DNA of 50,187 nt from Candidatus Bathyarchaeota archaeon B24. Its GTDB lineage: Archaea > Thermoproteota > CALKCG01 > B24. The DNA lies in the NCBI GenBank assembly GCA_001593865.1, contig LUCB01000005.1:79366-129552 (forward strand). Reading direction: 5' to 3'. Positions within the stretch are counted from its first letter, which is position 1, and each line of letters starts with the position of its first letter. The position numbers were made by a program, and so were the translations under genes. The notes below the pieces were generated by a model. The model saw only the letters and a list, made by a program, of their open reading frames with translations. It had not been told where the DNA came from and did no database searches. Below are positions 15,850-31,126 of this stretch, in pieces.

Positions 15850-16920
15850 TTGCTAGCTGCAGTTCTTAAACGACCGTTCACCCTCGAGCTTGAGGATGTT
15901 CCTAAGCCCACGCCCAGGGGAGACGAGGTTCTGATAAAAGTGGGCGCATGTGGGATATGCGGAAGCGATGTTCGATATTTTCAAGGTAAAAACCCCTGGG
16001 CTCTACATACGCTGGGCGTGGAGAAGCCGAACCCGCCGGATATGATCCTAGGCCATGAAGTCTCAGGAACCATAGTGGAGGCCGGCGACGCGAAGTTCGA
16101 AGATAGAATAGGTGAAAAGGTCGGTGTTATAGCATACAAGGCCTGTGGAAGGTGTAAGTTCTGTAGCGAAGGTAGGCATAACCTATGTGCAAACGTCCTG
16201 CATATCGGTCACGACGAGGCTTGGGGCTTCAAACCCTCCCCCGGCGGTATGGCCGAGTACTGCGCGGTGTGGGAGGATAAAGCCGTCAGGCTAGACTGGC
16301 CTGTAAGCTTCGAAGAGGCTTCTCAGCTAGACGGTTTAGCCGTATCTGTCCACGCGGCTTATAGGGCTCAGGTGAAGCCCGGCGATAGGGTCGCCGTGAT
16401 AGGGTCAGGCCCGATAGGACTTATGATCCTACAGACGGTCAAGGCTTTCGGGGCCTCAGAGGTCTTCGCCATAGACATCTGGGATAAGCCCCTAGACATA
16501 GCTCAGAAGCTCGGCGCCGACCACACGGTAGACTCCTCGAAGGAAGACCCCGTAAACTACATACTATCTAAGACCCGGGGTTGGGGGGTCGAAGCCGTCG
16601 TGAACACGGTGGGCTCGCCTGAAACGGTCGTAGACGGTTTGAAGATGCTGGCTAGAGGAGGGTGCCAGGTTCTACTCGCTGTGACGAGCGACACGGTTCA
16701 GCTGAACCTTAGGCTTCTAGCAGGTGAGAGGGTTCTAACGGTCTCGTCGAACAACCTCTACCCAGAATACTACACCGCGGTAAGCCTCCTGAAGACGGGT
16801 AGGGTCGAGATAAAACCATTCATAACCCACGTCCTACCGCTCGAAGAAGTTAAAGAAGCCTTCCGCATAGCGTTGAACAAAGAGGAATACGGCGCCCTTA
16901 AAGTCGTGATCAAACCTTAA
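15850..16920 (+). CDS. Zinc-dependent sugar/alcohol dehydrogenase (MDR family)
   Basis: 356 residues of the medium-chain dehydrogenase family. The catalytic zinc ligands are in GACGICGSD and ILGHEVSG; the structural zinc site is CGRCKFCSEGRHNLC (about 97-111). The NAD(P)-binding Rossmann loop is VIGSGPIGLM (about 184-193), followed by the acidic D in FAIDIW, which favours NAD. Sorbitol, glucose, threonine and related dehydrogenases share these features and the substrate is not decided by sequence alone. TTG start with GGGGTG upstream. A palindromic operator candidate surrounds its TATA box. Confidence 0.88.
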   Translation: MLAAVLKRPFTLELEDVPKPTPRGDEVLIKVGACGICGSDVRYFQGKNPWALHTLGVEKPNPPDMILGHEVSGTIVEAGDAKFEDRIGEKVGVIAYKACGRCKFCSEGRHNLCANVLHIGHDEAWGFKPSPGGMAEYCAVWEDKAVRLDWPVSFEEASQLDGLAVSVHAAYRAQVKPGDRVAVIGSGPIGLMILQTVKAFGASEVFAIDIWDKPLDIAQKLGADHTVDSSKEDPVNYILSKTRGWGVEAVVNTVGSPETVVDGLKMLARGGCQVLLAVTSDTVQLNLRLLAGERVLTVSSNNLYPEYYTAVSLLKTGRVEIKPFITHVLPLEEVKEAFRIALNKEEYGALKVVIKP

Positions 16921-16981
16921 ATGGCTTGATCTATATTCATCCCACCTTATCAGATAGAAAAACTACTCTATTTAGCATATT

Positions 16982-17779
16982 TCATATCGATTTAGTAATT
17001 ACTTTTATTCCTTCTCTTTCGAGTCTATCCACTATTTTAGATATTCCTCTAACTTTTCCAATATCTAAAATGAAGGTCACCAGATGGTCATAGTACTGAG
17101 AATAATCATCTATCTGACCTATAAGTCTCTGTAAATGAGTTCGAGAACTCGGTATTTTAACTTCTATACACATATCGCCTATAACAATATCTGCACGTAG
17201 TTTTTCGCCCATCCGGCCCTTTAGTGACACTTCTTTCCTCACTTTTAAGCCAGGAAATTTAGCACGAAGATAAATGCATATCTGGTTTACAAGCTCCCTC
17301 TCGTCTCTTATATGCTCAGGCTTAAATTCTTCAAGAGCTTGTAAAATTTCACTATAGTAAGACGATGTCTTTACAGTGGATTTCTCTTCAATAAGTTTAG
17401 TTCTAAATTTATCTAGTTCATCAAGTAAGTCTTGGTGCTTAATCTTATATGCTCTTGCAAATTTGATTATAGTTTTCAGAGATAATTTATCAGCCAGCCT
17501 CTCTACTTTTTCCTCCTTGGTTTTAGCTCTATAGATTTCACCTGTTAAGAAGTCCTTCCATTTCCATGAAATTCCCTTTCTACGCGCGATCTCGTTCAAC
17601 TGCTTAACTGAAAACCTATTGAGCATAGCTCTTCTAATTTCTCGTTCTTTTCTCCAATACTTAAAACTTGTAACAATGGAAACACCAGCAACCTTAGTGG
17701 CTAGAATCGAATATTTTGAAAACTTCTTAACGGCTTTGAGAAATCTACTCATCATCATTAAATTCTTAGGACATTTCAT
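16982..17779 (-). CDS. PD-(D/E)XK nuclease-like protein in an AT-rich island
   Basis: 265 residues. The C-terminal third has the restriction-nuclease pattern: E at ELVNQICIYLRAKFP, then LRADIVIGDMCIEVK (D followed by E-x-K), then a QIDDYSQYYDHLV helix. The middle has two similar short helical units (FSVKQLNEIARRKGIS and LSLKTIIKFARAYKIKH) that resemble DNA-binding SAP-like repeats. The N terminus has a weak hydrophobic stretch. Base composition is clearly more AT-rich and uses AAA and AGA more than neighbours, so recent acquisition is likely. Function not recognised; a solitary defence or mobile-element nuclease is possible. ATG at 17779; downstream ATG codons at residues 8-10 are alternatives. 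Confidence 0.65.
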   Translation of the reverse strand: MKCPKNLMMMSRFLKAVKKFSKYSILATKVAGVSIVTSFKYWRKEREIRRAMLNRFSVKQLNEIARRKGISWKWKDFLTGEIYRAKTKEEKVERLADKLSLKTIIKFARAYKIKHQDLLDELDKFRTKLIEEKSTVKTSSYYSEILQALEEFKPEHIRDERELVNQICIYLRAKFPGLKVRKEVSLKGRMGEKLRADIVIGDMCIEVKIPSSRTHLQRLIGQIDDYSQYYDHLVTFILDIGKVRGISKIVDRLEREGIKVITKSI

Positions 17780-17872
17780 TTAAAAATTTCCACAGAATCT
17801 AACCCACTTTATCTGAAAGGGTTCCCAATGGTCAAATTTATGTGATGCTTCCAGAGGGATGTCTTATAAACC

Positions 17873-17894
17873 TTTAATAAATAAGTTTATTAAA
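17873..17894. promoter_or_regulatory. Perfect 9-base palindrome in the promoter of the RHH/coiled-coil gene
   Basis: TTTAATAAA (17873-17881) and TTTATTAAA (17886-17894) are exact reverse complements separated by TAAG. The block ends 23 bases before ATG 17918 and occupies the TATA-box position, so a protein bound here would prevent TBP access. The downstream gene encodes a ribbon-helix-helix-like segment, which suggests autoregulation. Confidence 0.6.
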
Positions 17895-17917
17895 TACTTG
17901 TATTTCTGTATTCTTGT

Positions 17918-18706
17918 ATGAATGAATTAGATGATTTTAGGAAGAGGGTGGAAGACTTCAAGAGGCGTTTAAAGGAGGACTTCGAGCGTTCCCTTAAACG
18001 CTACGAGGACGCTTTGGACGAGCTTGAGAAGAGGGTTGAGGCGCTTCCTGAAGATAAGCTTAGAGACGTTTATCCCACGGTCCGAGAGCTTAGGAGAGGG
18101 TTGATGTCTGAGCTTTATGGACTGCACCGTGAGTTTAGGCGTATGGTTTACGATTTGAGGAGAAAACTTAGGAGGCTTGCTCTCAGGCTTCCAGAGGACT
18201 ATGGGGAGATGGTCGATGAGGTTAAGAGGGCTCTCGTAGATGCTAGAGACGAGCTGGAGGGCTATAGGGATTCAGCCTTAGCTCTGGCTAAAAAGCTTAG
18301 AAACCTTGAGCTTCGCGTTAGAGAGAGGCTCGGTAGGTCGGCTGGTTTACCTGTTGAAGTGGAGCCGCTGGAAAAAGGCTTCGATAGACTTATCGTAGGC
18401 ATCGAGGAGGTGCTAGGGGAGATACTCTCCTCCGCCGGGAGGATCCTTTCTAAGACGTCTGAGGTTATATCATCCGTTAGGATCCCCGAGTCCGACGCTA
18501 GGGTCATAAGGCTTCTGGTCGACGCGGGGATATTCAGGAGTAGAAACGACGCGTTAGCGTTCTTCGTGCATAAGGGCATAGAGGCCAGCCGGGATTGGCT
18601 TGAAAGGGTTCAGGATAGGCTTGAGAAGATCAGGGAGCTTCAGGAGGAGATGCGTAGGGAGCTTGAAAAGATATTCCGTAGCGAGGAAGAATTCCCCAAG
18701 GACTAA
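17918..18706 (+). CDS. Coiled-coil protein with ribbon-helix-helix-like domain
   Basis: 262 residues, very rich in Glu, Arg and Leu. Residues about 1-150 form long coiled coils (heptads such as FRKRVEDFKRRLKEDFERSL). Residues about 190-225, reading ARVIRLLVDAGIFRSRNDAL, match the helix-turn-helix part of CopG/Arc-type ribbon-helix-helix proteins (hydrophobic helix, G-[IFL]-x-S-R, second helix), and the tail is again a coiled coil. A similar archaeal family of unknown role is known to me only by this pattern. It could be a DNA-binding structural or regulatory protein. Starts at ATG 17918, preceded by a palindrome. Confidence 0.6.
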   Translation: MNELDDFRKRVEDFKRRLKEDFERSLKRYEDALDELEKRVEALPEDKLRDVYPTVRELRRGLMSELYGLHREFRRMVYDLRRKLRRLALRLPEDYGEMVDEVKRALVDARDELEGYRDSALALAKKLRNLELRVRERLGRSAGLPVEVEPLEKGFDRLIVGIEEVLGEILSSAGRILSKTSEVISSVRIPESDARVIRLLVDAGIFRSRNDALAFFVHKGIEASRDWLERVQDRLEKIRELQEEMRRELEKIFRSEEEFPKD

Positions 18707-20665: not shown

Positions 20666-21658
20666 TTAACCTTCTAGGTCTTTGAAGTATGGGATCACCT
20701 TCTCGCCTAACAGCCTTATGACCTCTAAGCCCTCTTTAAGGTCCATCCCTGGATAATGTACCCTGAAGATCATATCCGTCACCCCGAGGCGTTTAGCCGC
20801 ATCCTCGACCTGGGATATACATTCGTCGGGGTCTCCGACTATGAAACGGTCCCTAGCCACGTCTTCGAAACTCCTTAAGTCTTTAACCAGCGAATGCCCC
20901 CAGGAGACGTAGTCTCGGAAATACATAGCCCCTATGTATTTCTCAGCTTTCTCACGCGCCTCCACAGGGTCCTCGGCCACGTATGCCTCCCTGACGAGCG
21001 GGATCCTCTCAGGTTTCTTACCGAGCTTCTTCATGTAATCCATGTAGACCCGGTAGCTGTTGAGGACATCGCCCAGCGAACCCACAGGACCTATAAACCA
21101 TGCATCCCCCAGCTCAGCCGCCCGCCTTAAGGCTCTCCTGCTCCATCCCCCTACCCATATAGGGGGATGAGGCTTTCTGACAGGCTTCGGATACAGCGAG
21201 AAGCCTCTAACCTTGAAGAACCTTCCCTCGAAGTCCACGGTTGGCTCTGTCCAAAGTTTCTTTATGAGGACCAGCGACTCGGTCATCCGGTCTCCTCTAC
21301 CCTTCATAGGAACCTGGAAGACTTCGTACTCCTCCCTTCTATAGCCTAGGCCGACACCTAGGATAAGTCTTCCACCGGATATCACGTCGACCACGGCGGC
21401 GTCTTCGGCTACGTGAACCGGGTGGTACAGCGGAAGTATGAGGATGCACGTCCCCAGCTCTATACGCTTAGTCGCAGACGCTAGCCCAGCTAGAGCCACT
21501 AGCGGAGACGGATAATACATGTCTTCCCGCCCATGGTGTTCGAGCATCCAAGCCGAGTCGAAGCCTAGTTTCTCGGCAAGCTGAACCTCCTCGACCGTCC
21601 AGCTCCAATACCAGCCCCACTGGATAGGCGCCATGCCGAACCTCATGGAACGGCTCAT
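20666..21658 (-). CDS. Luciferase-like (LLM class) flavin/F420-dependent oxidoreductase
   Basis: 330 residues, a TIM-barrel of the bacterial luciferase superfamily. GFDSAWMLEHH (about 31-41) and TKRIELGTCILILPLYHP (about 63-80) are characteristic, as is RLILGVGLGYRREEYEVF (about 95-112). Archaeal members often use coenzyme F420 instead of FMN. WVGGWSRRALRRAAELGDAWF is the later substrate and cofactor loop. Substrate unknown; it is followed in the same direction by a hexapeptide acyltransferase. ATG 21658, with a second ATG four codons on. Confidence 0.87.
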   Translation of the reverse strand: MSRSMRFGMAPIQWGWYWSWTVEEVQLAEKLGFDSAWMLEHHGREDMYYPSPLVALAGLASATKRIELGTCILILPLYHPVHVAEDAAVVDVISGGRLILGVGLGYRREEYEVFQVPMKGRGDRMTESLVLIKKLWTEPTVDFEGRFFKVRGFSLYPKPVRKPHPPIWVGGWSRRALRRAAELGDAWFIGPVGSLGDVLNSYRVYMDYMKKLGKKPERIPLVREAYVAEDPVEAREKAEKYIGAMYFRDYVSWGHSLVKDLRSFEDVARDRFIVGDPDECISQVEDAAKRLGVTDMIFRVHYPGMDLKEGLEVIRLLGEKVIPYFKDLEG

Positions 21659-30307: not shown

Positions 30308-31126
30308 TTGAATGCGTGTAAAATGCTGGTCGTAAGATTGAATCAAAGGATATACGGGCCCTACGGGTTAGACGGGTTGAGGGTTCTTAGAAACATGGTA
30401 AAAAACATGCTAAACGGGATCGAGGTCGAGGTCTCAGAGGTCGCCGTGGGGTCTAGGGGGTGGGCCGAGGCTTTCCTCGAAGGAGCAGACACCGACGTGG
30501 CCGTGAGGATCCTGGAGGAATGCATAGGGGTTCTCCCGAGGAAGCCGGACGAGTTTTCGAAGGGAGCCTTACTGAAGGGTAGGGTTTTGACGTTGAAGGA
30601 TGACGGGCTCTACGTGGATGTGGGACTGGAAAACCTGGTCGTCAAGGTTCCGGCTCAGACTCTTAGAGGGCAACTTTTAGACGTGCGCTCTATGGGCTTG
30701 GAGGAGGCTAGACGGGCTTACATGCTCTACGGCGAATTCCCCGTCGAGTTGTACGTCGAGAGGCTTTGTAGGAAGACGGTCGAAGCGCGTCTATCGTGGA
30801 GGTGGCTCCGCTGGGTCGAGGGTATGGCTTTCTCAGGCTTAAGCCAGGTGTACATAACCGGCTTAACCCTACGGAGGGTTAAGAGGGCTCTAGGAAAAAC
30901 CAGGTATAGGCTGGCTGTGCTTGAATATAGGGCGCTCGGGGTCTTAGAGATCCTTATGGCTTTAGACCCATTAGTAGACATCGAGAGGTTCTCTCTATGG
31001 TTGAGGAAGACGTTAAACCCCTTGGGCTTAGGGTTTTCCGAGCCGTTTGAGAGCTCTGGGGAGCTCGCTTATGCTGTTCAAGACGAGGTCGGGCTGACCG
31101 TATCTCCACCTTTCCAGATCCGCTAA
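30308..31126 (+). CDS. DUF2110 family protein
   Basis: 272 residues (267 from ATG 30323). GALLKGRVLTLKDDGLYVDVGL (about 95-116) looks like an OB/S1-type strand set, and the C-terminal helical part has WRWLRWVEGMAFSGLSQVYI. I recognise the family as DUF2110, found in archaea next to TFE, with no known function; S1-like RNA binding and a link to transcription or ribosome biogenesis are guesses. The last 99 bases overlap the convergent HAD gene. Confidence 0.72.
   Translation: MNACKMLVVRLNQRIYGPYGLDGLRVLRNMVKNMLNGIEVEVSEVAVGSRGWAEAFLEGADTDVAVRILEECIGVLPRKPDEFSKGALLKGRVLTLKDDGLYVDVGLENLVVKVPAQTLRGQLLDVRSMGLEEARRAYMLYGEFPVELYVERLCRKTVEARLSWRWLRWVEGMAFSGLSQVYITGLTLRRVKRALGKTRYRLAVLEYRALGVLEILMALDPLVDIERFSLWLRKTLNPLGLGFSEPFESSGELAYAVQDEVGLTVSPPFQIR

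What the first reader, a model, noticed from the sequence alone, without database searches (positions are those of the whole stretch)
17873..18706. Perfect 9-base palindrome in the promoter of a ribbon-helix-helix/coiled-coil gene
TTTAATAAA-TAAG-TTTATTAAA covers the TATA position of a gene whose product has a helix-turn-helix segment (VIRLLVDAGIFRSRNDAL) like CopG-type proteins. This is the layout of autoregulation by a DNA-binding protein. The long coiled coils at both ends are unusual for a simple CopG repressor, so it may bridge or compact DNA.
Basis: partly seen in the sequence, partly recalled or inferred. Interest (0 to 1): 0.55.

Follow-up and report, generated by a model that had tools for sequence, protein, structure and literature searches.

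The report
Archaeal gene with self-regulating switch
An uncharacterised archaeal DNA-binding protein gene very likely switches itself off, but through a row of short repeated sites beside its start rather than through the palindrome first noticed, which arose by chance where foreign DNA inserted next to the promoter.

Summary
The palindrome TTTAATAAA-TAAG-TTTATTAAA (17873-17894) exists but is not an operator. Inverted repeats of this size are at chance level in the window. In the same-genus genome G001 the right arm (the TATA box) is conserved and the left arm is missing; here the left arm lies in inserted 34%-GC DNA absent at this locus from G001 and G002.

The general idea survives. The protein belongs to an unnamed archaeal family: an N-terminal helical bundle plus a C-terminal ribbon-helix-helix (RHH) domain. 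Its promoters share another element: TGTAW half-sites between TATA box and start, in the window three boxes exactly 8 bp apart (17898-17919). Two or more half-sites occur in 33 of 41 family clusters versus 3 of 75 control genes, and in 21 of 26 hold-out clusters. Same-strand pairs 8 bp apart occur in 12 of 41 and 11 of 26 clusters; shuffles average about 0.3. Most likely mechanism: negative autoregulation by adjacent RHH dimers covering the transcription start, as MetJ does on its 8-bp boxes. DNA binding is untested.

The parts
17873..17894 (.). Reported palindrome TTTAATAAA-TAAG-TTTATTAAA; the left arm lies in inserted DNA, the right arm is the TATA box
   Evidence: the left arm is absent from the same-genus locus L003
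17886..17895 (+). Likely TATA box TTTATTAAAT, conserved in G001; fits a leaderless or short-leader transcript
   Evidence: alignment with G001; identification as TATA box is from position and sequence (recalled archaeal consensus)
17898..17919 (+). Candidate autoregulatory operator: boxes TTGTAT (17898), CTGTAT (17906), TTGTAT (17914), exactly 8 bp apart, running into the ATG
   Evidence: three boxes also in G001 and four in G002
17918..18706 (+). Gene of the family: 262-aa protein with N-terminal helical bundle and C-terminal RHH domain
17924..18460 (+). Residues 3-181: predicted four-helix bundle (helices 3-42, 45-90, 96-138, 151-181)
   Evidence: block pLDDT 79-95 over residues 1-80, 56-91 for most of the rest; searches show only generic helical-bundle matches
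18467..18583 (+). RHH domain, residues 184-222: ribbon ISSVRIP, helix 191-202, turn GIFRSRN, helix 209-219
18590..18688 (+). C-terminal long helix, residues 225-257, conserved in family
16921..17882 (.). DNA not present in G001 or G002 between the dehydrogenase gene and this gene; AT-rich (34% GC versus 52% for the window)
16982..17779 (-). Gene in the insert, weakly similar to DpnII/MboI-type restriction endonucleases; found in 3 of 61 genomes searched, own included

Best explanation
The gene encodes a one-component DNA-binding regulator that represses itself. Its C-terminal RHH domain dimerises and reads short TGTAW half-sites (TTGTAT in the window). These half-sites are arrayed in 8-bp steps just downstream of the TATA box and across the start of the gene. 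Several dimers bind side by side along the array and block assembly or escape of RNA polymerase, so the protein limits its own level. The N-terminal helical bundle and the C-terminal helix probably link dimers or respond to a partner or signal. The reported palindrome is an accident: inserted AT-rich DNA happened to end in a sequence complementary to the existing TATA box. Shown here by computation: conservation, phasing and position of the array, absence of the palindrome in relatives, and RHH homology. Inferred: that this protein binds this array, that binding represses, and the role of the helical bundle.
For: An unbiased 5-mer census of the 70 bp upstream puts TGTAA/TTACA first: 35 of 41 family clusters against 12 of 75 neighbouring genes and a shuffle mean of 15.5. 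TGTAW/WTACA sites average 2.71 per family promoter, 0.37 per control and 0.96 per shuffle; two or more occur in 33 of 41 against 3 of 75; AT-matched controls 3 of 31. Same-strand spacing peaks sharply at 8 bp (19 pairs, 0.3 expected) and 16 bp (9 pairs, 0.3 expected); tail-to-tail peaks at 5 (9 pairs) and 13 (5 pairs). The 8-bp pair occurs in 12 of 41 clusters, 0 of 75 controls, at most 3 in 1000 shuffles. Hold-out of 26 clusters from genomes not used before: two or more sites in 21, 8-bp pairs in 11 (shuffle mean 0.26, maximum 2). 83 of 111 family sites lie within 30 bp of the start, against 9 of 28 control sites. Use of both orientations points to duplex DNA, not RNA. The perfect three-box array occurs only at this gene in G000, G001 and G002. 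Precedents: each MetJ dimer binds one 8-bp box and repression needs two or more adjacent boxes (PMC3228920, passages); archaeal viral RHH proteins occlude their own promoters (PMC5569661, passages).
Against: No binding data. The window protein itself scores below the Pfam RHH_1 cut-off (12.7 of 20.5 bits). The model's ribbon region has pLDDT near 45 and was predicted as a monomer, so the ribbon was not seen. The profile of the domain found no RHH protein among the solved-structure sequences. Half-site spacing varies between subgroups (head-to-head 6, 7, 10, 11, 12), and 1 of 41 training and 3 of 26 hold-out clusters show no site at the start chosen. TGTAW was settled on after reading the first set, so only the hold-out is an independent test of it.
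Confidence: 0.77

Rival explanations
1. The 9-bp palindrome is the operator of the RHH protein, as first proposed.
For: It is perfect, overlaps the TATA box and is unique in the window as a sequence.
Against: Left arm absent from G001 although the protein is 96% identical; neither arm in the G002 promoter; best of the other upstream regions has 4 mismatches. Inverted repeats of this size are at chance level in the window. The left arm lies in the AT-rich insert.
Confidence: 0.03
2. The conserved TGTAW array is real but is bound by another factor, or is a core-promoter or initiator feature, and the RHH protein acts elsewhere.
For: No binding test; the array lies where initiator and melting elements lie.
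Against: Control genes from the same genomes, AT-matched ones included, lack it (3 of 31 have two or more sites). It follows this gene family across many archaeal families. Two other small-regulator loci in the same genome carry a different motif (L002; L169). 8-bp phasing is what an RHH array predicts.
Confidence: 0.13
3. The protein is mainly a chromosome-organising protein that bridges DNA through its helical bundle, with autoregulation as a side effect.
For: Large N-terminal bundle, long C-terminal helix; CdbA of Myxococcus is an RHH protein acting as a nucleoid-associated protein (PMC7156744, abstract and passages). Bundle matches include the MukF and STAT helical regions, though such Z-scores are common for bundles.
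Against: The exact three-box array occurs only at its own gene in three genomes. The family is patchy: 54 of 398 genomes of the phylum. The bundle sequence is poorly conserved.
Confidence: 0.07

Closest known systems
MetJ (8-bp met boxes)
   Same: RHH-type reading by dimers of adjacent 8-bp boxes, two or more needed for repression (PMC3228920, passages)
   Different: No MetJ family match among the 11 families found for 20 domain segments. Box sequence differs; here the RHH is C-terminal to a ~180-aa helical bundle; the array sits at the protein's own gene
ParB of pSM19035 (omega), 7-bp heptad arrays
   Same: Short asymmetric boxes in direct and inverted orientation, bound as contiguous arrays (PMC9499535, passages)
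   Different: 7-bp rather than 8-bp step; part of a ParABS plasmid partition system; the present gene lies beside metabolic genes in the window
AbmR (Rv1265) of Mycobacterium tuberculosis
   Same: C-terminal positions 106-162 of the NCBIfam AbmR model match residues 187-243 (E 2e-8); C-terminal DNA-binding region behind an unrelated N-terminal part
   Different: Score 34 against a cut-off of 160 bits: not an AbmR. N-terminal parts differ; no ATP-binding evidence. AbmR's operator was not examined
Archaeal viral RHH repressors (SvtR, F55)
   Same: Autoregulation by promoter occlusion; F55 uses tandem repeats (PMC5569661, passages)
   Different: Small viral proteins, different motifs; the present family is chromosomal and several times longer
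CdrS/CdrL
   Same: Chromosomal archaeal RHH regulators with few targets; CdrL binds one promoter region (PMC7439475, passages)
   Different: CdrL and CdrS control the cdrS-ftsZ2 operon; CdrS model match only at E 0.17 to L005 and 0.021 to L010, far under its cut-off

Membership tests
Ribbon-helix-helix superfamily (Pfam RHH_1) | Sequence match of ribbon plus two helices to the RHH_1 model over its cut-off | tested here: inconclusive
   Window segment 12.7 bits against 20.5, so not met by the window protein itself; 5 of 10 relatives' segments reach the cut-off of 20.5 (L034, L035, L036, L038, L039); 16 of 20 match at E<=0.1
Ribbon-helix-helix superfamily (Pfam RHH_1) | Secondary-structure order: extended ribbon, helix, turn, helix | tested here: inconclusive
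   182-190 not helical, helix 191-202, helix 209-219, as the order requires; the ribbon strand itself was not seen and confidence there is low
Ribbon-helix-helix superfamily (Pfam RHH_1) | Dimer with intermolecular two-stranded sheet in the major groove | not testable with these tools
   Only monomer prediction available
RHH autorepressors with arrayed operators (MetJ/omega-like way of working) | Phased array of short boxes at the protein's own promoter | tested here: met
RHH autorepressors with arrayed operators (MetJ/omega-like way of working) | Protein binds the boxes and represses | not testable with these tools
   Needs gel shift or reporter
AbmR (NF058631) | Whole-protein score over the curated cut-off | tested here: not met
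   34 of 160 bits
CopG-type plasmid repressor | Small single-domain protein (about 45-70 aa, recalled) | tested here: not met
   262 aa with the RHH domain at 184-222

The most novel reading that the evidence does not exclude
A large, unnamed archaeal regulator family (helical bundle plus C-terminal RHH) whose dimers assemble on 8-bp-phased TGTAW arrays that can be extended box by box. The N-terminal bundle couples arrays, or a signal, to the DNA. The same C-terminal reading head occurs with other N-terminal parts in Chloroflexi and, more weakly, in mycobacterial AbmR, making one ancient modular system of self-limiting regulators.
Probability: 0.3. Interest if true: 0.55.

Novelty: new member of a known kind. 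Interest (0 to 1): 0.36.

Why it matters
The operator array gives an uncharacterised regulator family of Bathyarchaeota, Brockarchaeota, Thermofilum and other Thermoproteota a specific, testable DNA target. It also shows how an attractive palindrome can be made by chance at an insertion junction, and how comparing promoters of relatives finds the element that is really conserved.

Tried and rejected
Palindrome as operator: rejected. Palindrome as shared divergent promoter with the endonuclease-like gene: considered only; that gene's start (17779) is 94 bp from the palindrome, too far for a usual TATA spacing (recalled). RNA-level element: thought unlikely because half-sites occur in both orientations; no RNA search was run. 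Regulon: 7 of the 9 TGTATNNNTGTAT matches in G000 lie outside this promoter; in all seven an ORF of at least 70 aa covers the site, though in L170 that ORF may be spurious and the site may be intergenic, 228 bp upstream of the next ORF; no second perfect three-box array was found. The matches to GTATYRATACAA in five other genomes were listed but those off the family promoter were not read.

Structure searches: Foldseek gave no match at E<=0.001. VIA-align matches (STAT, MukF, Z about 12-13) cover residues 1-186 only and are within the range noted as common for helical bundles. No RHH fold was listed; the RHH part was barely tested there. Sequence search of solved structures with the RHH profile gave no RHH protein. 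Pfam hits of the whole protein to COG6_N, CorA and the like are taken as helical noise; they are below cut-off. The first genome-contig scan with the single protein found nothing. Class search around G152 gave no new genomes with matches. AbmR model in the 14 control genomes: no match. AbmR primary papers are not held, so AbmR's binding site could not be compared. A paper search for MetJ boxes needing 3 of 4 terms returned nothing.

Rows dropped before counts: of 65 loci with an ORF, 5 duplicates (L001, L003, L004, L010, L013), 3 short RHH paralogues (L002, L012, L014) and 2 cut by contig ends (L032, L052) were left out, giving 55, clustered to 41. Starts are the first in-frame ATG (first GTG/TTG when there is no ATG within 60 codons), set by hand for L030, L040, L041 and L042. 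Hold-out: of 45 genomes with a match, 13 had been used before and G552 was left out (weak, many stops), giving 31 ORFs and 26 clusters not within 70% of the training set; starts there were not corrected by hand.

Full report
Observation. The palindrome is present exactly as described and the ORF 17918-18706 is intact. As a class of feature it is unremarkable: the window has four perfect inverted repeats with arms of at least 9 and loops of at most 10, and ten dinucleotide shuffles gave 0 to 4, mean 2.

Origin of the palindrome. The window lies in G000:C28. Its family relative G002 carries this gene on a contig of 138,844 bases; the same length and the same upstream sequence are found in a named Bathyarchaeota record, so the host is an archaeon related to Bathyarchaeota. 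In G001 (same genus) and G002 (same family) the order is dehydrogenase gene, this gene, radical-SAM gene, with the first two about 40-45 bp apart. In the window the first two are separated by DNA of 34% GC (window 52%) with a gene weakly like DpnII/MboI endonucleases (E 4.9e-5, below cut-off). That gene is found in 3 of 61 genomes, the window's own included, and not in G001 or G002. Aligned with G001, the homology upstream of this gene runs from 17883 to 17917 with one mismatch and stops at 17883. The right arm and TATA box are therefore ancestral, and the left arm belongs to the insert. Of 55 family upstream regions (150 bp), none outside the window's own has fewer than 4 mismatches to the palindrome.

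What is conserved instead. Reading the upstream regions of homologs showed GTA-containing repeats between TATA box and start. A 5-mer census with no motif given ranked TGTAA/TTACA first: 35 of 41 clusters, 12 of 75 control genes, shuffle mean 15.5, Fisher p 1.6e-13. TGTAW/WTACA sites: mean 2.71 per family promoter, 0.37 per control, 0.96 per shuffle. Two or more: 33 of 41, 3 of 75, and 3 of 31 AT-rich controls. Same-strand distances: 19 pairs at 8 bp and 9 at 16 bp, each 0.3 expected; tail-to-tail: 9 at 5 bp and 5 at 13 bp. An 8-bp same-strand pair is in 12 of 41 clusters, 0 of 75 controls, at most 3 in 1000 shuffles. The window has three boxes at 17898, 17906 and 17914, G001 three and G002 four.

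Hold-out. Because TGTAW was settled on after seeing the first set, a new class was searched (45 of 229 genomes match). Thirty-one unused members gave 26 clusters outside 70% identity to the first set. Two or more sites occur in 21 of 26 (8.7 in shuffles); 8-bp pairs in 11 of 26 (mean 0.26, maximum 2 in 500 shuffles). Three of 26 had no site (L147, L156, L159); the first ATG there may be internal, which was not corrected.

Specificity. The exact three-box array occurs only at this gene in G000, G001 and G002. The seven other places in G000 with two boxes are all covered by ORFs of at least 70 aa, one of them possibly a spurious ORF in intergenic DNA (L170). Inverted forms (GTATYRATACAA) lie at the family promoter in all five other genomes searched: it is the only place in G020 and G176, while G034 has one, G041 two and G027 three other places, which were not read. 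Two other small-regulator loci of this genome have different, TATAC-rich promoters (L002, L169).

Protein. The family is in 54 of 398 genomes of the phylum at E<=1e-8; named members are Bathyarchaeota, Brockarchaeota, Thermofilum and others, with distant Chloroflexi proteins that carry the domain, one of them behind two repeats that look like Clp N-terminal domains (by eye; not searched). The conserved part is residues 184-257. Pfam RHH_1 matches 16 of 20 segments at E<=0.1 and reaches its cut-off in 5 of 10 tested singly; the window segment itself is below it. AlphaFold2 with 14 sequences gives mean pLDDT 75.9: helices 3-42, 45-90, 96-138 and 151-181 as a bundle, a non-helical stretch 182-190, then helices 191-202, 209-219 and 225-257; confidence around the ribbon is low. 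That the first four helices pack as a bundle is read from the bundle matches (STAT and MukF, Z about 12-13), which are within the range noted as common.

Mechanism. Shown by computation: an 8-bp-phased array of one half-site, at this gene family's promoters, downstream of the TATA box, in both orientations, private to the gene as a perfect array in the nearest genomes. Inferred: RHH dimers of this protein occupy adjacent boxes and block transcription from their own promoter. This matches MetJ, where each dimer binds one 8-bp box and two or more adjacent boxes are needed (PMC3228920, passages); the pSM19035 ParB heptads (PMC9499535, passages); and archaeal viral RHH repressors acting by promoter occlusion (PMC5569661, passages). 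The role of the helical bundle is unknown; linking dimers or sensing a partner is a guess.

Novelty. No Pfam or NCBIfam model names the family over its cut-off. Three literature searches listed no paper that, by title and abstract start, describes it. RHH autorepressors with arrayed operators are a known kind; this is a new family of them with an unusual architecture.

Noticed in passing
window 16982-17779 (-): Patchy gene weakly similar to DpnII/MboI-type restriction endonucleases inside a 34%-GC insert, with a 7-bp direct repeat AAACCTT at 16912 and 17868 near its ends; a relative with 39% identity is in G024.
   Followed up: partly
window 20918-20942 and 21144-21169: Two perfect hairpins (arms 11 and 10) inside the luciferase-like monooxygenase gene 20666-21658 (-).
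   Followed up: no
window 30862-30883: A further perfect inverted repeat, arms 9, loop 4.
   Followed up: no
L002 1489-2243; L169 1119-1854: Two loci of the same genome with a small ORF followed by a PIN-domain-like ORF (VapBC-like by eye; the first ORF of L002 matches RHH models), each with a TATAC-rich repeat at its promoter.
   Followed up: partly
L084 2386-3384; L086 2521-3258: Chloroflexi proteins with the same C-terminal domain, in L084 behind two repeats that look like Clp N-terminal domains; their upstream regions also hold TTACA or TGTAA half-sites (two cases, no statistics).
   Followed up: partly
L010 1336-1980 (-): Relative in the same order whose RHH domain is followed by a zinc-ribbon-like CxxC...CxxC tail.
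   Followed up: no
L060, L061, L066, L069, L070 upstream regions: A subgroup uses TTTAC/GTAAA half-sites with about an 18-bp repeat instead of the 8-bp step.
   Followed up: no
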